The position numbers and the translations under genes are program-made. The notes beneath the pieces were generated by a model that was not told the origin of the DNA, made no database searches, and was given only the letters and a program-made list of their open reading frames with translations. Below are positions 55,505-64,000 of a stretch of DNA of 64,000 nt, piece by piece. This DNA is from Acidobacteriota bacterium (GTDB lineage Bacteria; Acidobacteriota; Holophagae; Acanthopleuribacterales; Acanthopleuribacteraceae). How positions within the stretch are numbered: position 1 is the stretch's first letter; each line of letters opens with the position of its first letter. Location of the stretch: assembly GCA_020439745.1 (NCBI GenBank), contig JAGQSC010000027.1, positions 124,001 through 188,000 on the forward strand. Reading direction: 5' to 3'.

Positions 55505-56488
55505 ATGTTCTGTCGTGCATGGGTATGGATGCTCTGTAGCGTGTGGATTCTGGCGGGTCGTGATTATCGAGTATATCGAGCGGGGAACAGCCGCGACGTG
55601 GTAACCGAGGTAGAGGCTGGTTTCGTGTTTATGGGTGGTGGAGGCGACGTACAAGAAGCTTTCGATTGGCTTATCGATCGCTCAGGAGGAGGTGACTTCG
55701 TCATACTACGAGCCGATCGACCGGACCGCCGTTTTAACTACTACGATTGGATCTATTCGGAACTGGGCGGTGTGGACTCTGCAGAGACCATCCATATCAA
55801 GAATCGCGCAGGCGCGAATGCAAACGAAGTTCGCGACCTCGTGATGCGTGCAGAGGCCATTTTCATTGCGGGTGGCAACCAAAACACCTATTTGGAGGAT
55901 TGGGCTGGAACACAGCTCGCTGCCGCATTGAACGATTGTGTCGCTCGGGGTGTGCCGATTGGCGGTACAAGTGCGGGTATGCATTTGATGTGTGCACGCG
56001 TCTACGATGGCCGCAATAATTCCAGTTATGGCTATGAGGCCCTTGAAGACCCTTATAACTTTCGAATGACGTTCACCCCCGGGTTTCTGAATGTGCCGCA
56101 TGTGGACGGCCTGACGACCGAGACACATTTCTACGAACGCGATCGAATGGGTCGCGCGATGGCGTTTGCCGCTCGGCTGGTTGAGGATGGCTGGTCCGAT
56201 TACGGACGCGTGCTGGCTGTAGATGAAGGTACGGCCTTTGTCATGGACGAGAATGGCTATGGTTATGTGCTAGGCGATGGATATGTCTACTTTTTGGAGA
56301 CCACAAGTCCACCTTCCGTATGCACGCCGGGTCAACCCCTAACCATCGACGATGTTTGGGTTTACCGTATTCGCGATGATTTCAGCCAGTGGTTTGACCT
56401 GAGCAATTTCAGTGGATCTGGGGGACTTGCGTATTGGTTAGACGCTGATGGGGGTACGTTGGTTTCGTCGCGGGGCTCTGTCTATTGA
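55505..56488 (+). CDS. Secreted cyanophycinase-like peptidase (S51)
   Basis: 327 aa. GGAGGG precedes the ATG; signal-like N-terminus MFCRAWVWMLCSVWILAG. S51 motifs: VFMGGGGDVQEAFDWLI, IFIAGGNQNTYL, the nucleophile Ser in GGTSAGMHLM (about residue 158) and THFYERDRMGR (catalytic His region). Cyanophycinases release beta-Asp-Arg dipeptides from cyanophycin; exported relatives act on extracellular polymers or other isoaspartyl-type peptides. No cyanophycin synthetase is present in the window. Transcribed from its own promoter, convergent with rtcA by 7 nt overlap. Confidence 0.85.
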   Translation: MFCRAWVWMLCSVWILAGRDYRVYRAGNSRDVVTEVEAGFVFMGGGGDVQEAFDWLIDRSGGGDFVILRADRPDRRFNYYDWIYSELGGVDSAETIHIKNRAGANANEVRDLVMRAEAIFIAGGNQNTYLEDWAGTQLAAALNDCVARGVPIGGTSAGMHLMCARVYDGRNNSSYGYEALEDPYNFRMTFTPGFLNVPHVDGLTTETHFYERDRMGRAMAFAARLVEDGWSDYGRVLAVDEGTAFVMDENGYGYVLGDGYVYFLETTSPPSVCTPGQPLTIDDVWVYRIRDDFSQWFDLSNFSGSGGLAYWLDADGGTLVSSRGSVY

Positions 56489-57489
56489 AGGACCTCCACC
56501 TGGTACATGCCCCTCAGGTCTTTCGTCCTGATTCGCACGGGCAGGAATTGTTCGATGGTCACGACGTTCGTCGTGAAGTGGGAAGACAGATGGTCGGTTG
56601 TAAATGATCCGCCACCCATCAAGGCCAAGGGCACCATCAACTGATCGGCAAGGTGTTCCTCAACGGCAGCGCCCGAATCTAGGTACCTTTTCACTCGATC
56701 AATCAATTGCAGGGCGAGCATTTCGGCTCGCAAGCCCCGTTTACCGCAGCTCGCGAAAACGGCCACCACGTGCTCGCGCCGAACGGTAATCGTCAGCACA
56801 TTACCTGGCCCTTGCGCATCGACCCGGCGCACCTTCGCGGAAGTCACATGGAGGCCTTCGCGACAGACGTTGATTTCACGCAATCCAATATGCTGAGGAA
56901 GCGTTGAAAGGATCGCTTCTGCATGGATCTCGGTGACCCTGCCCGGTTGGTCGAGGTGGATCGATTCGCGTTTTTGGGTGCCGCGAATTTCGGCTGTCAG
57001 ACGCCCACCGCCAGCTGGGTAGAAGCCGTGCTTGACAAGGTTTACCTGCATGGACGACTGAGTTGGAGCAAGTGCGGGAAGATAGCTGTTAGCCAAGAAG
57101 TCATAAGTCGGAGCCATGGTGTTGTGGGTGCCACCGTCGATTTGTACCGAGCTCGTACCTTCATGCATGATCATGGCTGGGATCAAGGTTTGCAGCACCA
57201 AGGCTGTACTTCCAGCGGTGCCAATGGCGATGTGATACGTGCCATGGCAAAAGGGACCGGGCTCGAATATGAGCGACTGAGCACCCAAATCAGCCCCCGA
57301 CACATACGCGCTGCACACACGGGCGGCCGCCAGCACCGATGTGAGGTGCTGGCGCATGAGGCCCGGATTTGCACGATTGGCGCGTAGGTTCACGAAACGA
57401 ACCGGCTGGCCTGTTGCCATAGAAAGGCTGAGCGACGAGCGCAAGATCTGGCCGCCGCCTTCGCCTTTTGAACCGTCAATGGTGATCAT
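56482..57489 (-). CDS. rtcA: RNA 3'-terminal phosphate cyclase
   Basis: 335 aa. Converts RNA 3'-phosphates to 2',3'-cyclic phosphates through an RNA-adenylate. N-terminal ITIDGSKGEGGGQILRSSL and the C-terminal ADQLMVPLALMGGGSFTTDHLSSHFTTN with the active-site His are characteristic. It follows rtcB by 3 nt on the minus strand and is presumably driven by the same sigma-54 promoter at 58739-58754. Part of the RNA repair locus. Confidence 0.95.
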   Translation of the reverse strand: MITIDGSKGEGGGQILRSSLSLSMATGQPVRFVNLRANRANPGLMRQHLTSVLAAARVCSAYVSGADLGAQSLIFEPGPFCHGTYHIAIGTAGSTALVLQTLIPAMIMHEGTSSVQIDGGTHNTMAPTYDFLANSYLPALAPTQSSMQVNLVKHGFYPAGGGRLTAEIRGTQKRESIHLDQPGRVTEIHAEAILSTLPQHIGLREINVCREGLHVTSAKVRRVDAQGPGNVLTITVRREHVVAVFASCGKRGLRAEMLALQLIDRVKRYLDSGAAVEEHLADQLMVPLALMGGGSFTTDHLSSHFTTNVVTIEQFLPVRIRTKDLRGMYQVEVLQ

Positions 57490-57492
57490 GGT

Positions 57493-58713
57493 TTATCCTT
57501 TGACACACACAACTTGTTTCAAAGTGTGTACGATCTCGACCAAGTCGGCTTGAGCTTCCATGACCTTGTGGATGGGCTTGTATGCCATAGGCGTTTCGTC
57601 AATCACCCCTTCATCCTTGCGGCACTCGACTCCTGCCGTTGCTTTGGCATGGTCCGCAATGGAGAAGCTGCGTTTCGCTTCCGTCCGCGACATCACACGG
57701 CCAGCGCCGTGGCTGCAAGTATGAAAGCTTTCAGGATTGCCTTTGCCACGGACGATGAACGAACACGCGCCCATGGAGCCTGGAATGATACCCATTTCGC
57801 CGAGCCCAGCACGAACCGCGCCTTTTCGGGTGACCCATACTTCTTCTCCGTAATGGGACTCCTTCGCCGCGTAGTTGTGGTGACAGTTGACGGCCTGCAC
57901 ATGGGTCTCGAACGGTGGCAACAGATTTGAGTCTCTGAGTGCCTCGATCATGTGAACCATCATGATCTCTCGGTTATTGCGTGCGAAGTCCTGAGCCCAA
58001 AGTACCGCTTCTACATAGTCGTCGAAATGAGCGCTACCTTCGGAAAAGTACGCAAGATCTCGGTGAGGCAACCGGCCGAGTTGGCGCTCCATGTCTTTCT
58101 TGGCAAGATTGATGAACATGGTGCCAATTCGGTTCCCGATACCTCGTGACCCACTGTGCAGCATGAACCAGACTCGATTCTGCTCGTCCAAGCACACTTC
58201 GACAAAGTGGTTGCCTGTGCCAAGTGTACCCAAGTGCACTCGGTCGTTGGCGTCTTTGATACGGGGGTGCTTTTCGACGATCAGGTCCAGTCGCTTAGCG
58301 AGCGGTTTCCAGACCTTATCCACAGATTTGGGGACTTTGGACCAGGCGCCCTTATCGTTGCGGCGTCCACCGCCCGACCGTCCATGGGGGATGGCACGTT
58401 CAATGACGTCGCGCACGCCCGCCAAGTGGTCCGGTAAGTCCGATGCCGCCAATGACGTTTGCACGGCCATCATGCCGCAACCCAAGTCCACTCCGACCGC
58501 GGCCGGGATGATCGCTGCCTTGGTGGGGATGACGCTTCCAATGGTGGCCCCGATCCCCACGTGCACATCGGGCATAGCGGCAACCCACTTGTGAATAAAC
58601 GGCATTTGCGCTGTTTGTCGCAGTTGCAATTCAGCTTTCGGATCGAACGGTACACCGTTCACCCATGCCTTTACGGGCACGCCGCCATGTACATGTAACG
58701 TTTGATAGCTCAT
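57493..58713 (-). CDS. rtcB: RNA-splicing ligase RtcB
   Basis: 406 aa. Joins 2',3'-cyclic-phosphate or 3'-phosphate and 5'-OH RNA ends with GTP and Mn. Metal ligands and nucleotide-binding blocks: VGVDLGCGM with the ligand Cys, DVHVGIGATIG, GTLGTGNHFVEV, HSGSRGIGN, and the guanylated His in HTCSHGAGR. The ATG is preceded by GGAGG at seven bases and by the -24/-12 promoter about 26 nt upstream. Heads the rtcBA operon controlled by the next gene, rtcR. Confidence 0.96.
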   Translation of the reverse strand: MSYQTLHVHGGVPVKAWVNGVPFDPKAELQLRQTAQMPFIHKWVAAMPDVHVGIGATIGSVIPTKAAIIPAAVGVDLGCGMMAVQTSLAASDLPDHLAGVRDVIERAIPHGRSGGGRRNDKGAWSKVPKSVDKVWKPLAKRLDLIVEKHPRIKDANDRVHLGTLGTGNHFVEVCLDEQNRVWFMLHSGSRGIGNRIGTMFINLAKKDMERQLGRLPHRDLAYFSEGSAHFDDYVEAVLWAQDFARNNREIMMVHMIEALRDSNLLPPFETHVQAVNCHHNYAAKESHYGEEVWVTRKGAVRAGLGEMGIIPGSMGACSFIVRGKGNPESFHTCSHGAGRVMSRTEAKRSFSIADHAKATAGVECRKDEGVIDETPMAYKPIHKVMEAQADLVEIVHTLKQVVCVKG

Positions 58714-58738: not shown

Positions 58739-58754
58739 GGCAATCTCGATGCCA
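58739..58754 (-). promoter_or_regulatory. Sigma-54 (-24/-12) promoter of rtcB-rtcA
   Basis: On the minus strand TGGCATCGAGATTGCC, an RpoN site with exact GG-N10-GC spacing. The transcription start is expected near 58728, leaving a leader of about 15 nt that contains the rtcB ribosome site. Confidence 0.85.
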
Positions 58755-58870: not shown

Positions 58871-60472
58871 CTATAAATCATTGACCGCGTGGCCGAGATC
58901 GAATTGGCTGGGCGAGAGCCCGAATCGTTGTAGGTATTTGCGCAAACGATCGGCATCGTTGGGGTTCTTCTTTTTTAGCCGCGAAGCCTGGAACAAGTGT
59001 CGGCCGGCCTCCGACAGTGTGCGCGATTTTTGACAGACTTGGATGACTTCTGTCAGTTGAATGCGGTCAAAGCGATCGATGGCTTCGATCTCTTCTTCGG
59101 ACAGATAGTTCAGCAGCAGAGGTGGGTCCGGTTCCGGTGCGCGCCAGTTGCGTTTGAGGCGCAGGATTTCGCCAGCTACCACATCCTGGGTGATACGTCC
59201 TGAAGGGGCCAGGGTGGCCATGCGCTGCACAGCCGCGTTGAGGTCGCGAAAGTTGCCGGTCCAGCTGGCTTCGGCGCTAAGCGCGAATTTGAGGAAATCG
59301 CGATAGGCCTCGCTATTGAAACGCACGTTTACACCATGACTTTGCGCGTGTTTGGCCAATTCATACTGTAGGTTGGGTTCCAGGTCTTCAAGGCGGTCCC
59401 GCAATGCGGGTAGCTCAAAGCTCCAGGTGTTGATGCGGGCCAGAAGGTCCTCGCGGAATGCTCCCTGTGCGACACAGTGCCACAGGTCGCGATTGGTCCC
59501 AGCAATGAGCTGGAACCGACTCTCTGTCTCGCGGTCGGAACCCAGCGGCAAGAAGCGGCCATCTTCAAGGGCGCGAAGGAGCATGGCTTGTTCGTCCAAG
59601 CCCAGTTCGCCTATCTCGTCCAAAAACAGCAGGCCCCGGTCCGCCAAACGCAGCAGGCCTGGCCTGTCGCTGAGTGCCCCCGTAAAGGCGCCTCGGGTGT
59701 GACCAAACAGAGCCGACATGGCGCCTTCACCGCGTAGCGTGCTGCAATTGACTTCGACGAACTCGCCTTTGAGTTGGTGCTTGCTGCGTTTGAGCTCGTA
59801 CAAGCGCTTGGCCAACTGCGATTTGCCTGCGCCCGTGGGTCCCATGAGCAGGATGGGCGCCTGCGAACGCATAGCCACCAACTCGATTTCATCGATCATG
59901 TGGTTAAAGTGGGCGTTTCTTGTGGCGATCCCCGATTTCAGGTGAGAACGGTGGGCTTCAGTTTCCTTGCCAAACCGTGTGGCAATAGCATCGTACCGAG
60001 AAAGATCCAAGTCGATGATTTGGTAACTGCCACATGGGTCGCGCCTGCCGTTTCGCGTGGGAGAAGTCTGGATGAGCTGTGCTGGAAAGTATCGTGCCTC
60101 GGTTAGCAGGAACAAGCAGATCTGGGCCACGTGGGTGCCAGTGGTGATGTGGACCAAGTAATGAATCTCGTCGCGATAGTCATAGTCAGTGGCAAAACTG
60201 TGCAATGCCGCAAACACGCCTTCAAAATCCCAAGGGTCTTCCATTTCCAGCTCATGTACGTGGATAGCGGTTCCTGGTGAAACTTGTTGCATGTCCTCGG
60301 TCAGTCTCTGTGCATGACTGGTGTAGGCGGAGGTCACGAGAAGGTCCAAGCGTGTGACCTGCAGATCCGGCTGCTGCAACAGTGAAACGGTGGGTCGCCA
60401 GCGCTCCCAGCGTTTACGTCCTTGTCCCGCATCCAGGGTGGGTCCGTAAAGTCCGATGACGTGTGTCTCCAT
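58871..60472 (-). CDS. rtcR: Sigma-54 activator RtcR with CARF-like sensor domain
   Basis: 533 aa. Residues 1-~165 are the RtcR regulatory domain, a divergent CARF-type Rossmann fold (VIGLYGPTLDAG; HYLVHITTGTHVAQICLFLL), which in known RtcR proteins senses damaged RNA ends and keeps the ATPase off until then. The AAA+ domain follows with Walker A GPTGAGKS at 211-218, the sigma-54 loop GAFTGA at 261-266, Walker B LLFLDEIGELG and R-finger FREDLLARI. The C-terminus is a short helical DNA-binding part. AGAGGG six bases before ATG 60472 fixes the start. It is flanked by rtcBA and the slipin locus, both with -24/-12 promoters, so one activator likely runs both sides. Confidence 0.94.
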   Translation of the reverse strand: METHVIGLYGPTLDAGQGRKRWERWRPTVSLLQQPDLQVTRLDLLVTSAYTSHAQRLTEDMQQVSPGTAIHVHELEMEDPWDFEGVFAALHSFATDYDYRDEIHYLVHITTGTHVAQICLFLLTEARYFPAQLIQTSPTRNGRRDPCGSYQIIDLDLSRYDAIATRFGKETEAHRSHLKSGIATRNAHFNHMIDEIELVAMRSQAPILLMGPTGAGKSQLAKRLYELKRSKHQLKGEFVEVNCSTLRGEGAMSALFGHTRGAFTGALSDRPGLLRLADRGLLFLDEIGELGLDEQAMLLRALEDGRFLPLGSDRETESRFQLIAGTNRDLWHCVAQGAFREDLLARINTWSFELPALRDRLEDLEPNLQYELAKHAQSHGVNVRFNSEAYRDFLKFALSAEASWTGNFRDLNAAVQRMATLAPSGRITQDVVAGEILRLKRNWRAPEPDPPLLLNYLSEEEIEAIDRFDRIQLTEVIQVCQKSRTLSEAGRHLFQASRLKKKNPNDADRLRKYLQRFGLSPSQFDLGHAVNDL

Positions 60473-60544: not shown

Positions 60545-60560
60545 GCAGCTCAGTTAATTT

Positions 60561-60587
60561 CATAAACGACTGAAAAAAAACAGGTTA
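60561..60587. promoter_or_regulatory. 27-bp element shared with the rtcB promoter region
   Basis: Same CATAAA-N4-TGAAAAAAAAC-N2-GTTA pattern as 58770-58796 (22/27 identical). Here it lies 20 nt upstream of the -24 box of the plus-strand promoter. Possible IHF bend site between enhancer repeats and promoter. Confidence 0.6.
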
Positions 60588-60606
60588 TATCAGTTGCATG
60601 TGACAA

Positions 60607-60622
60607 TGGCACGCTGATTGCC
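60607..60622 (+). promoter_or_regulatory. Sigma-54 (-24/-12) promoter of the tRNA-like RNA and slipin gene
   Basis: TGGCACGCTGATTGCC, a near-perfect RpoN site (TGGCAC-N5-TTGCC, exact GG-N10-GC). Transcription should start near 60633 and run through the structured RNA region (60640-60950) into the slipin gene at 61031, giving an unusually long leader of about 400 nt. Confidence 0.88.
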
Positions 60623-60643
60623 TTTCTGTGTCTTGTTGACCAC

Positions 60644-60663
60644 GGTTCCGGTGGCACCGAACC
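60644..60663 (+). ncRNA. Hairpin at the 5' end of the leader RNA
   Basis: Arms GGTTCCGGTG and CACCGAACC pair with a single bulged C, just after the predicted transcription start. It could protect the 5' end or be a processing signal. Confidence 0.5.
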
Positions 60664-60693
60664 TGCCCTTACGGTTTGGGTTGCGGTGTTCCA

Positions 60694-60781
60694 TGTACGG
60701 TCTCATCCAACGTCAACGCGCTGAATGGTACAGCACGATGCTTTTAACATCGAGAAGCGGGTTCGATTCCCGCCCTTACGT
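60694..60781 (+). ncRNA. tRNA-Lys(UUU)-like RNA with a defective acceptor stem
   Basis: From 60720 the cloverleaf arms are clear: D-arm GCTG-AATGGTA-CAGC (60720-60734), anticodon arm CGATG-CTTTTAA-CATCG (60736-60752) with the canonical Lys loop and UUU at the anticodon position, a 4-nt variable loop, and a T-arm GCGGG-TTCGATT-CCCGC (60757-60773). The 3' acceptor strand CCTTACG (60774-60780) has no good partner at the normal place: the heptamer at 60711-60717 pairs at only four of seven positions, while TGTACGG at 60694-60700 pairs at six of seven but leaves a 19-nt insertion before the D-arm. No CCA is encoded. So it is a tRNA mimic or decayed tRNA rather than a standard tRNA gene; it lies between an RtcR-type sigma-54 promoter and the slipin gene. 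Confidence 0.72.
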
Positions 60782-60840
60782 AGGTAACGACACTGGGGAA
60801 AGGAGCATGTTTGAAGGGATGACGACACCGGACTGGTGAG

Positions 60841-60950
60841 GGGGCGGTTCGGTTGGAAAATGGCCAGTGGGCCCTGCAGCCTTACGGATACCGCTCGTCT
60901 GCGGCGAGTGCGAATACGCGCATCTAGGTGAGCGTTTTGCACGCCGCCCC
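60841..60950 (+). ncRNA. Second structured RNA element in the slipin leader
   Basis: GGGGCGG (60841-60847) pairs perfectly with CCGCCCC (60944-60950), closing a ~110-nt domain; a further T-G pair extends it. Inside are hairpins, e.g. GCTCG (60893-60897)/CGAGT around TCTGCGG, and a GGGCCC self-complement. The stretch before (60782-60840) and after (60951-61030) shows no gene and no strong fold. Together with the tRNA-like part it makes the leader look like a multi-domain non-coding RNA. Comparison with Y RNAs is tempting but no Ro60 gene is present in the window. Confidence 0.45.
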
Positions 60951-61030
60951 ATATGAGCTCAAGTAAGGCTCCGCGCCACGCACCTTCTAAAGCTCAGACA
61001 TGCTCTGGACCTCGAGAAAGGAGAAAGACA

Positions 61031-62134
61031 TTGATCAAAATAGTAACCATCCAATCCTGCCATCTGGGACTGGTAACGCGCAACGGTGAATTGGTGCGCG
61101 TGCTAGAGCCTGGCCGGCATACCATTCTGGGTTTTCATCGGCTGGACGTAGTGAACTGTTTGGAATCCCAGTGGTCACCTGAGGACTTGGAACGTCAAGT
61201 GCGTTTTGCACCGCTTGCGGCACACCTGCACGTGGTGGACCTTCACGACCACCAAAGGGCTCTGGTTTGGCGTGAAGGCCGATTGCATGCCCTGCTTGGG
61301 CCTGGAATCCATGCGTTTTGGCGCTCGCCTTGTGTGATTCGGTTCGAAGTTCTGGAGATCCAGGACTTGAGATTCGAACACCGAGAAATGGATACCATCC
61401 TATTGCTTCACGACGCGCGATACCACTTGGAAGACATCCATGTTCAGGCACATCAAAACGTACTGATGTTCCGGGACGGCTCCTTGATGGAACGTCTGGA
61501 GGCGGGACGACACGTGTTCTGGAAAACTGGAGCGGATCTGCGTCAAGTGGTCGTGGAACTTCGGGAGCAATATCTGGATATCCAGGGTCAGGAGATTATG
61601 TCGTCCGACAAAGTGAGCCTGCGGGTGAACATGTCGGTGGCGTATCGTGTGGCGGACCCAGTCATGGCACATGCTGAGGCTGAAGATCCTGCGCGTGCGC
61701 TGTATCGCGAAGCACAACTGGTTTTGCGCGCCGCGGTGGGAACCCGAACTCTAGATGAATTGCTGGCGGATAAAGAGTCCATTGCGGGAGAAGTACGTGA
61801 TGGTCTGCAAGTGTCTGCGGCACGTCTTGGTTTGGCGCTGAACACCGTAGGTGTGCGTGACATCATCCTTCCGGGCGATATGAAAGAACTCTTGAACCAG
61901 GTTACCGAAGCCCAAAAAGCATCGGAAGCCAACATCATTCGTCGACGTGAGGAAACGGCAGCAGCCCGTAGCCAAGCCAACACCGCACGTTTATACCAAG
62001 ACAACCCGGCCCTCTTGCGCATGCGCGAGTTGGAGGCCATTCAGGACATCATGAAAAACGCCCAGACCACATTTCATATGGGCCAAGGCGCGTTATTGGA
62101 TCAACTGCGCTCGTTGTTGCGGGTTGACCCCTAA
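61031..62134 (+). CDS. Slipin / band-7 (SPFH) family protein
   Basis: 367 aa from TTG 61031, set by AAAGGAG seven bases upstream; the in-frame codons upstream lie in the structured leader and are not protein-like. N-terminal ~130 residues are an unusual repeat of the start of SPFH proteins (LVTRNGELVRVLEPGRHTIL; ALVWREGRLHALLGPGIHAF; VLMFRDGSLMERLEAGRHVFW). Then the SPFH core (LDIQGQEIMSSDKVSLRVNMSVAYRVADP, ALYREAQLVLRAAVGTRTLDELLADK, LGLALNTVGVRDIILPGDMKELLNQV) and a C-terminal coiled-coil-like EAQKASEANIIRRREETAAARSQANTA. No clear membrane helix. Co-occurrence with RtcR/RtcB suggests a membrane or scaffold role in RNA repair. Confidence 0.85.
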   Translation: MIKIVTIQSCHLGLVTRNGELVRVLEPGRHTILGFHRLDVVNCLESQWSPEDLERQVRFAPLAAHLHVVDLHDHQRALVWREGRLHALLGPGIHAFWRSPCVIRFEVLEIQDLRFEHREMDTILLLHDARYHLEDIHVQAHQNVLMFRDGSLMERLEAGRHVFWKTGADLRQVVVELREQYLDIQGQEIMSSDKVSLRVNMSVAYRVADPVMAHAEAEDPARALYREAQLVLRAAVGTRTLDELLADKESIAGEVRDGLQVSAARLGLALNTVGVRDIILPGDMKELLNQVTEAQKASEANIIRRREETAAARSQANTARLYQDNPALLRMRELEAIQDIMKNAQTTFHMGQGALLDQLRSLLRVDP

Positions 62135-62181: not shown

Positions 62182-63579
62182 TTAGTTGACGACAATGATG
62201 TCGCCCAGTTCCAGCTTACTGATGCGGGGCTGTTGGGGTGCTACCTCGAACAGGTATCCAGGTGCCACGCCTGGACGTGAACCTCTTAGGAAAACACAGC
62301 CCAAAGGCTGAGTAGATTCTATAACGATGAGTTCGGTGCCTACCGGCGTCATCTCGTCGAGTACCCACAATTTCTTGCTGTTGGAAAAGAACGTTTGGGG
62401 CGCAGCCAATTGGCTTTCGCCCAGCAGTAGACCGCCGCTTCCCAAGAACCTTGCGTGAACTTCAGCCGCTTCTTGGCCCTTGTTGACCGCCGCCAGGCCG
62501 TCAAATACATATTGGCCTTCCCCTGGCGAGATCACAAAACGCGTTGCGTCGGTCGTTGATGCATTGACGTGGGCTGTCGCGCCTTGACCAGTAGCGATTC
62601 GGTATCCAACCTTAATCAAGCAGTTAGGACCTCCACGAAAATGGATGTGCGAGATGTCGCCTCTTTGGAACCAGTCCTGAATAGTTGCCGTCAAGTTGCT
62701 TCCTGTAGGGGCTGTGAGGACCACTTCCTCCAGAAGATGTCCTGACGACGAATAGAGTTCAGCGACGGTTGCGTGCTCAAGATAATCCATGTTGACCATG
62801 GTCAATGTGGTGGTAAATAACGCGTTGCCGGGTGTGATGTGATAGAGCCACTGGCCATCTGCCTGATGCGTGTATTGGGCAATGGCGCCATCGGTCGAGA
62901 TATCTAAGGCCAGTGCATTCCCTACGGCAAAGAAACTGCCGGTGACTACGGTGTTCTCATCGTAAGCAGAGCAGTTAAAGCGATAGAAACCCTCCGTATC
63001 GGGTTGTGCCTGCATGGTGTTTACCCCTAAGAGCGTTGAAACCGGACCCCAAAGGTTCTCATGATTGCGCGCGTTGGCCAGGCCCCGTTCCCAGGCCAGT
63101 TCAGCCTTTGCTCCTTGCTCGGCGGAAATGCCAAGATGCGTGGAGATCACGGCGGATTCGTTTGGGGCTGAAGGCATGCCATTTTGCCTTACCCAGGTGG
63201 AAGAATCACTGGTTACGCGCAACCAGATGGCGTTCTCTCCGCTCATCCAACGCACGATGGAGATTGCGTTGGCAGGCATGTTGATGCTTGCGTCTGGATC
63301 ATCGGTGTCCAGGATCGAGGCCAAGTGGATGACGCTCGCTTCATCGCTGACCCGTGTCTGAGCTAAAGTCAGTCCATGTTCCAGCTGTAGCGCCAAGTAG
63401 ATGGGTTTGGTGGGGCTTGCTCCGACGAAGTCATTGCCCCTGACGACCATGACAAGTTGTCCGGCAACTTCCAAATTGCGTCCTGATTCAACCGGTCTAA
63501 ATGTACCGGTGATGTCAATCCCAGCCAAGGCTTGAAGAGTGCATATGAGGGTTAAGATGGTGAGCTTGAAGCGTTTCAT
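62182..63579 (-). CDS. Secreted protein with repeated C-terminal beta units
   Basis: 465 aa. ATG 63579 has GGAGG five bases upstream and begins a signal peptide MKRFKLTILTLICTLQALAG. The body has no recognised family, but the last ~250 residues contain units of the same style as the end of the protease at 1952-4609 (e.g. LTMVNMDYLEHATVAELYSS, SHIHFRGGPNCLIKVGYRI, FVISPGEGQYVFDGLAAVNKGQ, LWVLDEMTPVGTELIVIES). No catalytic motif is seen. It may be a surface or matrix protein that shares a binding module with the protease. Convergent with the slipin gene across a hairpin terminator. Confidence 0.65.
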   Translation of the reverse strand: MKRFKLTILTLICTLQALAGIDITGTFRPVESGRNLEVAGQLVMVVRGNDFVGASPTKPIYLALQLEHGLTLAQTRVSDEASVIHLASILDTDDPDASINMPANAISIVRWMSGENAIWLRVTSDSSTWVRQNGMPSAPNESAVISTHLGISAEQGAKAELAWERGLANARNHENLWGPVSTLLGVNTMQAQPDTEGFYRFNCSAYDENTVVTGSFFAVGNALALDISTDGAIAQYTHQADGQWLYHITPGNALFTTTLTMVNMDYLEHATVAELYSSSGHLLEEVVLTAPTGSNLTATIQDWFQRGDISHIHFRGGPNCLIKVGYRIATGQGATAHVNASTTDATRFVISPGEGQYVFDGLAAVNKGQEAAEVHARFLGSGGLLLGESQLAAPQTFFSNSKKLWVLDEMTPVGTELIVIESTQPLGCVFLRGSRPGVAPGYLFEVAPQQPRISKLELGDIIVVN

Positions 63580-63748
63580 GGTTTCCTCCAGATGTGTTTT
63601 CGCTTTCACACCAAATCGCGCCACCCATGCGAAGCCGGGGACATGCGATTCCCTTTCTGTGATACCACTCACAAGAATGGCCCATCGAAAAGCTGCAACT
63701 TGACCAAATACCTCGCGTAGATTAACTTCGGCGTCTTGGGGGATGTTC

Positions 63749-64000
63749 ATGATTGCCTTGATCTATTTGTTGATGCAGGAGCCGACGAGCGTTCGCGCGG
63801 TGGCTGTGGAAGAAGTTGCCTTTCATCCACAGTCGGAAGTTGCCGGCGAGGTCATCGCGCATTGGGACAGTGCTTTGGGCGCAGAAGTCTCAGCGGTTAT
63901 CGAATCTGTTCTTGTGGATGTCGCGGACCAAGTGAAAGCTGGAACACCTTTGTTGCGCATGGATGCTCGGGTGTTTGAGTTGGGTGTGTTGCAAGCTAGG
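63749..64000 (+). CDS. RND efflux membrane-fusion protein, HlyD family (partial)
   Basis: First 84 codons; the gene continues past the right edge. Translation: a hydrophobic start MIALIYLLMQEP, then VEEVAFHPQSEVAGEVIAHWDSALGAEVSAVIESVLVDVADQVKAGTPLLRMDAR, the biotinyl-lipoyl-like half of periplasmic adaptor (HlyD/AcrA) proteins (G-x-V...G-x-x-V-x-x-G-x-P-L). GGGGGA five bases upstream supports ATG 63749. It is divergent from the secreted-protein gene across 169 nt. The pump and outer-membrane partner are presumably further right. Confidence 0.72.
   Translation, partial: MIALIYLLMQEPTSVRAVAVEEVAFHPQSEVAGEVIAHWDSALGAEVSAVIESVLVDVADQVKAGTPLLRMDARVFELGVLQAR

What the first reader, a model, noticed from the sequence alone, without database searches (positions are those of the whole stretch)
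60694..60781. tRNA mimic with intact D, anticodon and T arms but broken acceptor stem
The 3' acceptor strand CCTTACG pairs at only four of seven positions with the heptamer at the normal place, while a heptamer 19 nt further upstream pairs at six of seven. No CCA follows. The inner part is nevertheless a clean tRNA-Lys core. This is either a decaying tRNA gene or a purposeful mimic that cannot be charged normally.
Basis: seen in the sequence. Interest (0 to 1): 0.8.

Follow-up and report, generated by a model that had tools for sequence, protein, structure and literature searches.

The report
tRNA-mimic RNA in RNA-repair locus
Next to a bacterial RNA-repair operon, the leader of a "slipin" gene carries a tRNA-shaped RNA that cannot be a working tRNA but whose shape is conserved in the same place in several bacterial phyla, so it is a dedicated tRNA look-alike of the tRNA-damage response rather than a dying tRNA gene.

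Summary
The D, anticodon and T arms are real (Rfam tRNA 43.1 bits, arms only); the acceptor stem and CCA are absent. The element lies on the + strand between divergent rtcR (with rtcB, rtcA behind it) and an SPFH/slipin gene, 113 nt downstream of a strict sigma-54 promoter motif. It is not a decaying tRNA-Lys. In 35 homologues (Acidobacteriota, Planctomycetota) a tRNA-like module sits upstream of the same slipin; D-loop GG, T-loop, U8 and A58 are invariant, anticodon- and T-stems covary, but the anticodon differs almost everywhere and the consensus acceptor has only 4 bp. All 40 other tRNAs of this genome have U8 and encoded CCA; this element has neither. The window copy is the most deviant: 1 of 4 inner acceptor pairs, no U8, no Levitt pair. 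A second element, GGAUACCG (60886-60893), is shared by 25 of 55 loci, so the RNA is longer than the tRNA-like part. From memory, Burroughs and Aravind (2016) reported a tRNA-like RNA with SPFH proteins of RNA-repair operons; this is a divergent member. Likely role: an RtcR-induced, non-chargeable decoy or scaffold working with slipin/RtcBA; role inferred, not shown.

The parts
60607..60621 (+). sigma-54 promoter motif TGGCAC-N5-TTGC, predicted RtcR-dependent promoter of the leader RNA and slipin
   Evidence: Strict motif; only 4 strict matches on both strands of the 64 kb window, two of them in front of the two rtc units; the same pair of sites in sister locus L007
60711..60781 (+). tRNA-like module: D arm 60720-60734, anticodon arm 60736-60752, T arm 60757-60773; acceptor strands degenerate
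   Evidence: Rfam RF00005 43.1 bits; comparative alignment of 36 modules
60871..60893 (+). second conserved element GCCYUG-N9-GGAUACCG of the same leader
   Evidence: GGATACCG upstream of slipin in 25 of 55 loci; GGATACC in 28 of 57 against 2.4 expected from shuffles
61031..62134 (+). slipin / SPFH (Band 7) protein, probable TTG start at 61031
   Evidence: Pfam Band_7 5.5e-32; frame and start
58871..60472 (-). RtcR, sigma-54 activator with RtcR (CARF) sensor domain
   Evidence: Pfam RtcR 5.1e-73; NCBIfam NF038308 above cut-off
58740..58754 (-). sigma-54 promoter motif TGGCATCGAGATTGC in front of rtcBA
57493..58713 (-). RtcB RNA ligase
   Evidence: Pfam RtcB 7.8e-125
56482..57489 (-). RtcA RNA 3'-phosphate cyclase
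   Evidence: Pfam RTC 2.4e-69; NCBIfam above cut-off

Best explanation
The element is the tRNA-like module of a longer structured RNA transcribed from a sigma-54/RtcR promoter together with the slipin gene of an RNA-repair locus. When tRNAs are cut, RtcR (activated by tRNA fragments) switches on rtcBA on one side and this RNA plus slipin on the other. The RNA keeps the tRNA elbow (D-loop/T-loop contact) and an anticodon-arm-sized hairpin but has no complete acceptor end, so it is not charged and does not decode; most likely it works in trans with slipin and RtcBA, as a tRNA decoy for whatever cuts tRNAs and/or as the RNA scaffold on which slipin rings hold repair enzymes or damaged tRNAs. Shown by sequence: identity, conservation, linkage, loss of acceptor. 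Inferred: transcription from that promoter, binding to slipin, decoy or scaffold role.
For: Position: divergent from rtcR and ahead of slipin, with sigma-54 motifs in front of both units, repeated in the sister genome. Conservation: a module upstream of slipin in 35 other loci of Acidobacteriota and Planctomycetota; RNAalifold on a sequence-only MAFFT alignment recovers D, anticodon, T arms and a 4-bp acceptor, with the anticodon-stem pairs, the four acceptor pairs and most T-stem pairs beyond all or all but one of 500 shuffles. U8, D-loop GG, UUC and A58 in 35 of 35, A14 in 34. Anticodon loops of 4 to 8 nt and over 20 different anticodons. Acceptor positions 1-3 paired in only 16-19 of 35; all 7 paired in 2 of 35, against 14 of 20 other tRNA-shaped elements in the same upstream regions. 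A perfect T arm upstream of slipin in 44 of 55 loci against 0.06 expected. Second shared element GGATACCG. In Phycisphaerae the same locus runs rtcR / tRNA-like - slipin - tRNA genes - rtcB - rtcA. Literature: rtcBA is induced by tRNA fragments through RtcR (PMC7790460); in Anabaena one repressor, TrcR, controls a slipin gene, rtcB and a 26-gene tRNA operon (PMC10272220); YrlA, a tRNA mimic in rtc operons, was proposed as a competitive inhibitor of the anticodon nuclease (PMC7790460).
Against: No expression data. The window copy has lost 3 of 4 inner acceptor pairs, U8 and the Levitt pair, so it could be on the way out even if the family is functional. In Clostridia and Enterobacteria only a T arm is recognisable, which does not fit a full tRNA decoy well. 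Constant placement just upstream of slipin also fits a cis role. Sigma-54 sites were not found in front of most Planctomycetota loci.
Confidence: 0.5

Rival explanations
1. Cis-acting leader: the tRNA-like fold and the GGAUACCG element form a 5' leader that controls processing (RNase P or RNase Z cutting at a tRNA-shaped signal), stability or translation of slipin mRNA; the RNA has no role of its own in trans.
For: Always upstream of slipin on the same strand at about 250-600 nt; tRNA genes and mimics interleaved with slipin in Planctomycetota; second element close to the start codon.
Against: RNase P wants a full acceptor/T helix, which most copies lack (established knowledge); no conserved pairing with the slipin ribosome-binding site was seen (inspection).
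Confidence: 0.27
2. Signal source: the RNA is bait that the same anticodon nucleases cut; its 2',3'-cyclic phosphate fragments feed RtcR and amplify induction.
For: RtcR responds to tRNA fragments; the anticodon hairpin is kept as a covarying stem while its loop varies.
Against: In Salmonella fragments of the tRNA mimic YrlA were not detected; the RNA lies behind an RtcR-type promoter, so it would exist only after induction; reduced forms lack the anticodon arm.
Confidence: 0.1
3. Decaying tRNA gene (a former tRNA-Lys) that happens to lie here.
For: Acceptor, U8, Levitt pair and CCA are all lost in the window copy.
Against: Same place, same shape and covarying stems in two phyla; anticodon not kept between sister loci; stems differ from the genome's tRNA-Lys; D and T arms intact.
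Confidence: 0.05
4. Functional tRNA with an unusual acceptor, charged and used in translation.
For: Some Planctomycetota homologues have 6-7 acceptor pairs followed by CCA (L053, L062, L063).
Against: No acceptor stem, no CCA, no U8 here while all 40 other tRNAs of the genome have U8 and encoded CCA, including a tRNA-Lys(UUU).
Confidence: 0.03

Closest known systems
tRNA-like RNA linked to SPFH/Band-7 proteins in RNA-repair operons (Burroughs and Aravind 2016, Nucleic Acids Res 44:8525)
   Same: RNA-repair operon with SPFH protein and a tRNA-like RNA (statement of the abstract, recalled from memory)
   Different: Paper not held, so details could not be compared; the acceptor loss here, the GGAUACCG element, sigma-54 motifs and tRNA arrays may or may not be described there
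YrlA, bacterial Y RNA with a tRNA-like domain (Rfam RF02553)
   Same: tRNA elbow mimic, often inside rtc operons, induced through RtcR (PMC7790460, PMC8394870)
   Different: Partner is Rsr/Ro60, absent here; no Rfam YrlA match in the window; here the partner gene is slipin and an anticodon hairpin is kept
Canonical tRNA genes (Rfam RF00005)
   Same: D, anticodon and T arms; scores above the Rfam threshold
   Different: No acceptor stem, no U8, no CCA; anticodon not conserved among homologues
Inducible tRNA operon with rtcB and slipin in Anabaena (TrcR regulon)
   Same: slipin, rtcB and extra tRNAs under one stress regulator (PMC10272220)
   Different: Repressor TrcR instead of RtcR/sigma-54; scattered genes; no tRNA mimic reported in the passages read

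Membership tests
functional tRNA gene | D, anticodon and T arms | tested here: met
   RF00005 43.1 bits, positions 10-63
functional tRNA gene | 7-bp acceptor stem | tested here: not met
   4 of 7 pairs in place, expected by chance in 21%
functional tRNA gene | encoded CCA and U8, as in all 40 other tRNAs of this genome | tested here: not met
functional tRNA gene | aminoacylation | not testable with these tools
   needs tRNA sequencing or acid gel
SPFH/slipin-linked tRNA-like RNA of RNA-repair loci | SPFH gene directly downstream on the same strand | tested here: met
   Band_7 at 61031-62134
SPFH/slipin-linked tRNA-like RNA of RNA-repair loci | RtcR/RtcB/RtcA neighbourhood | tested here: met
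SPFH/slipin-linked tRNA-like RNA of RNA-repair loci | tRNA-like fold with conserved D and T loops | tested here: met
SPFH/slipin-linked tRNA-like RNA of RNA-repair loci | shared GGAUACCG element downstream (seen in about half of the loci) | tested here: met
   60886-60893
SPFH/slipin-linked tRNA-like RNA of RNA-repair loci | 4-bp inner acceptor helix and UA at positions 8-9 (consensus found here, not a published or defining criterion; 25 of 35 homologues have all four pairs) | tested here: not met
   1 of 4 pairs, GC instead of UA
SPFH/slipin-linked tRNA-like RNA of RNA-repair loci | features as published in 2016 | not tested
   paper not held
YrlA bacterial Y RNA | match to Rfam RF02553 | tested here: not met
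   no YrlA match in the window at the Rfam threshold or at E up to 5 in 60560-61060
YrlA bacterial Y RNA | Rsr/Ro60 (TROVE) gene next to it | tested here: not met
   none of the eight neighbouring proteins scanned has a TROVE domain
tmRNA | tmRNA called by ARAGORN | tested here: not met
vault particle (as an analogy for slipin plus RNA) | slipin folds like major vault protein over its whole length | tested here: inconclusive
   MVP aligns over residues 2-345 (Z 10-12), but the N-terminal part alone is not singled out as MVP and looks like three SPFH1-type beta subdomains

The most novel reading that the evidence does not exclude
The slipin leader is a large non-coding RNA with at least two conserved parts (tRNA elbow mimic and GGAUACCG element) that assembles with a ring- or cage-forming SPFH protein into a ribonucleoprotein induced by tRNA damage, a bacterial counterpart in spirit of the vault or Ro/Y RNA particles; the acceptor is dispensable because only the elbow is read, and E. 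coli carries a reduced form.
Probability: 0.25. Interest if true: 0.88.

Novelty: new variant of a known kind. Interest (0 to 1): 0.6.

Why it matters
It separates the parts of tRNA shape that evolution keeps in a mimic (elbow, arms) from those it drops (acceptor end, anticodon identity), in a locus whose regulator senses broken tRNAs. No Rfam 15 family other than tRNA itself matched the window or the Clostridia leader tested above noise, its function is open, and a reduced form lies in front of slipin in 1624 of 5426 complete E. coli genomes, so its role can be tested directly.

Tried and rejected
Alternative acceptor strand 19 nt upstream: present but 25% by chance; flank duplexes across 36 loci not above shuffles except L038. 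Consensus structure around GGAUACCG: sequence conserved, no covariation found. Decaying tRNA-Lys: rejected by homologues and by comparison with the real tRNA-Lys. Rfam at loose thresholds gave only tRNA, a weak tymovirus tRNA-like hit (21.4 bits, gathering 40) and noise in the window. RtcR loci without slipin in four family members (L008-L011) show no tRNA-like element within about 5 kb. A vault-protein origin of the slipin N-terminus was tested and not singled out. Literature: Burroughs and Aravind 2016 not held; no paper held that links slipin, RtcB and a tRNA-like RNA.

Full report
WHAT IS THERE. The + strand at 60720-60773 folds as a clean tRNA core: D arm 60720-60734, anticodon arm 60736-60752 with loop CUUUUAA, T arm 60757-60773. 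Rfam's tRNA model matches exactly these positions (43.1 bits, model 10-63 of 71), the only Rfam match in 64 kb, while ARAGORN calls nothing. In the own genome it is the weakest of 41 tRNA matches and the only one without the acceptor. Acceptor strands CGUCAAC and CCUUACG pair at 4 of 7 in the normal place, which random sequence reaches in 21% of cases; the 6-of-7 heptamer further upstream is reached by some upstream heptamer in 25% of cases. So the observation of a broken acceptor is right, and the proposed substitute strand is not supported; an upstream helix drawn by RNAfold is no stronger than with shuffled flanks.

SURROUNDINGS. To the left, on the - strand, are rtcR (58871-60472), rtcB (57493-58713) and rtcA (56482-57489); to the right, on the + strand, is an SPFH/Band-7 slipin (61031-62134). 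A strict sigma-54 motif, TGGCACGCTGATTGC, lies at 60607-60621 ahead of the tRNA-like module and slipin, and another, TGGCATCGAGATTGC, at 58754-58740 ahead of rtcB; the window has only four such strict matches on both strands. RtcR is a sigma-54 activator, so both units are probably its targets. The nearest relative (G001, a Holophagae MAG) has the same arrangement: both promoters, the tRNA-like module (L007 5797-5867), slipin, rtcR, rtcB, rtcA. Its D arm is identical and its T arm differs only at the first T-stem pair, but its anticodon is UAG, not UUU.

HOMOLOGUES. Searching with the slipin found loci in Acidobacteriota, Planctomycetota and Clostridia. Upstream of slipin almost every Acidobacteriota and Planctomycetota locus has a tRNA-like module. 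Thirty-five of these plus the window were aligned by MAFFT without structural guidance; RNAalifold then gave D, anticodon and T arms plus a 4-bp acceptor, and the anticodon-stem, acceptor and most T-stem pairs show several pair types and exceed all (or all but one) of 500 column shuffles; the D-stem hardly varies. The cores were cut out with a tRNA-shaped parser, so they are selected for D, anticodon and T arms; the acceptor was only weakly weighted. U8, D-loop GG, UUC and A58 are present in 35 of 35 and A14 in 34: the tRNA elbow is what is kept. Acceptor positions 1-3 pair in 16, 16 and 19 of 35, positions 4-7 in 28, 35, 34 and 33; only 2 of 35 have all seven, against 14 of 20 other tRNA-shaped elements in the same upstream regions. 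Anticodon loops range from 4 to 8 nt and the anticodons differ almost everywhere. Seven of 35 are followed by CCA, three of them with 6-7 acceptor pairs (L053, L062, L063): a small group that may be closer to a real tRNA. A perfect T arm upstream of slipin occurs in 44 of 55 loci, against 0.06 expected from shuffled sequence. Clostridia and Enterobacteria keep little more than the T arm.

A LONGER RNA. About 110 nt after the T arm the window reads GCCCTGCAGCCTTACGGATACCG. GGATACC occurs upstream of slipin in 28 of 57 loci (2.4 expected by shuffling) and GGATACCG in 25 of 55, preceded by a similar GCCYTG block, across Acidobacteriota, Planctomycetota and Clostridia. No covarying helix could be shown there. 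So the conserved unit is a leader of roughly 400 nt, not a stand-alone tRNA gene.

THE WINDOW COPY IS DIVERGENT. It keeps only one of the four inner acceptor pairs, has GC instead of UA at positions 8-9 and lacks the Levitt pair. All 40 other tRNAs of the genome carry U8 and an encoded CCA, among them a tRNA-Lys(UUU) whose anticodon loop is identical but whose stems differ. It is therefore neither a working tRNA nor a recent copy of tRNA-Lys; whether this single copy is restructured or starting to decay cannot be decided from one genome.

HOW IT MAY WORK. Established: tRNA fragments activate RtcR-dependent rtcBA expression in Salmonella, and the tRNA mimic YrlA there was suggested as a competitor of the anticodon nuclease (PMC7790460); RtcAB bind RtcR and tmRNA is an RtcB target (PMC9650030); in Anabaena slipin, rtcB and a 26-gene tRNA operon share a repressor (PMC10272220); P. 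aeruginosa PA14 has an SPFH gene inside its rtc locus (PMC13086221). In Phycisphaerae the slipin unit also carries tRNA genes and rtcB/rtcA, and one Planctomycetota contig has 31 tRNA-shaped genes around slipin (L018). From this I infer an RtcR-type response that repairs tRNAs, in some lineages resupplies tRNAs, and makes a tRNA look-alike plus slipin. A trans decoy or scaffold is my preferred role (about 0.5), a cis leader role is the main rival (about 0.27).

SLIPIN. The predicted structure (pLDDT 84) has an SPFH domain and long helix like stomatin, preceded by extra beta subdomains. Major vault protein aligns along the whole model (Z 10-12), but the N-terminal part alone (pLDDT 89) resembles three SPFH1-type subdomains and does not single out vault protein. 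The vault parallel stays an analogy.

COMPARISON. The nearest known thing is the tRNA-like RNA that Burroughs and Aravind (2016) linked to SPFH/Band-7 proteins of RNA-repair systems; I know this from the abstract by memory and could not read the paper. It works like YrlA in being a tRNA-elbow mimic of an rtc locus, but fails the YrlA tests (no RF02553 match, no TROVE gene). I file it as a divergent variant of a known, poorly understood kind.

Noticed in passing
L018 816-8275 (also L014, L016, L017, L019, L031, L032): Arrays of tRNA genes interleaved with or following the slipin gene, up to 31 in one Planctomycetota contig; in L014 and L016 they lie between slipin and rtcB/rtcA with rtcR divergent.
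   Followed up: partly
L069 5400-7922, L071 2960-6913: 1624 of 5426 complete E. coli genomes carry a slipin locus with a leader that keeps a T-arm-like hairpin; in L069 and Citrobacter L071 a nucleotidyltransferase-domain gene follows slipin, and in Citrobacter rtcR is divergent with a sigma-54-like motif.
   Followed up: partly
L013-L017, L019, L036, L038 (about 370-440 nt before slipin): A second, armless tRNA-like mini-domain (hairpin plus GGTTCGA T arm) follows the main module by about 45 nt; in several of these another T-arm element lies about 160 nt upstream.
   Followed up: no
L072 4476-4617: Photobacterium has two tandem tRNA-like modules between a sigma-54 motif and slipin; the pair also gives a weak, sub-threshold YrlA match (27 bits, gathering 69).
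   Followed up: no
window 61031-61558: Slipin N-terminus holds three SPFH1-like beta subdomains before the SPFH domain; the full model aligns end to end with major vault protein.
   Followed up: partly
L008-L011: Four family members of the window's species have RtcR with RtcB and RtcA in another arrangement and no slipin and no tRNA-like element nearby.
   Followed up: partly
window 62182-63750: 522-aa ORF on the - strand next to slipin with no Pfam match.
   Followed up: no
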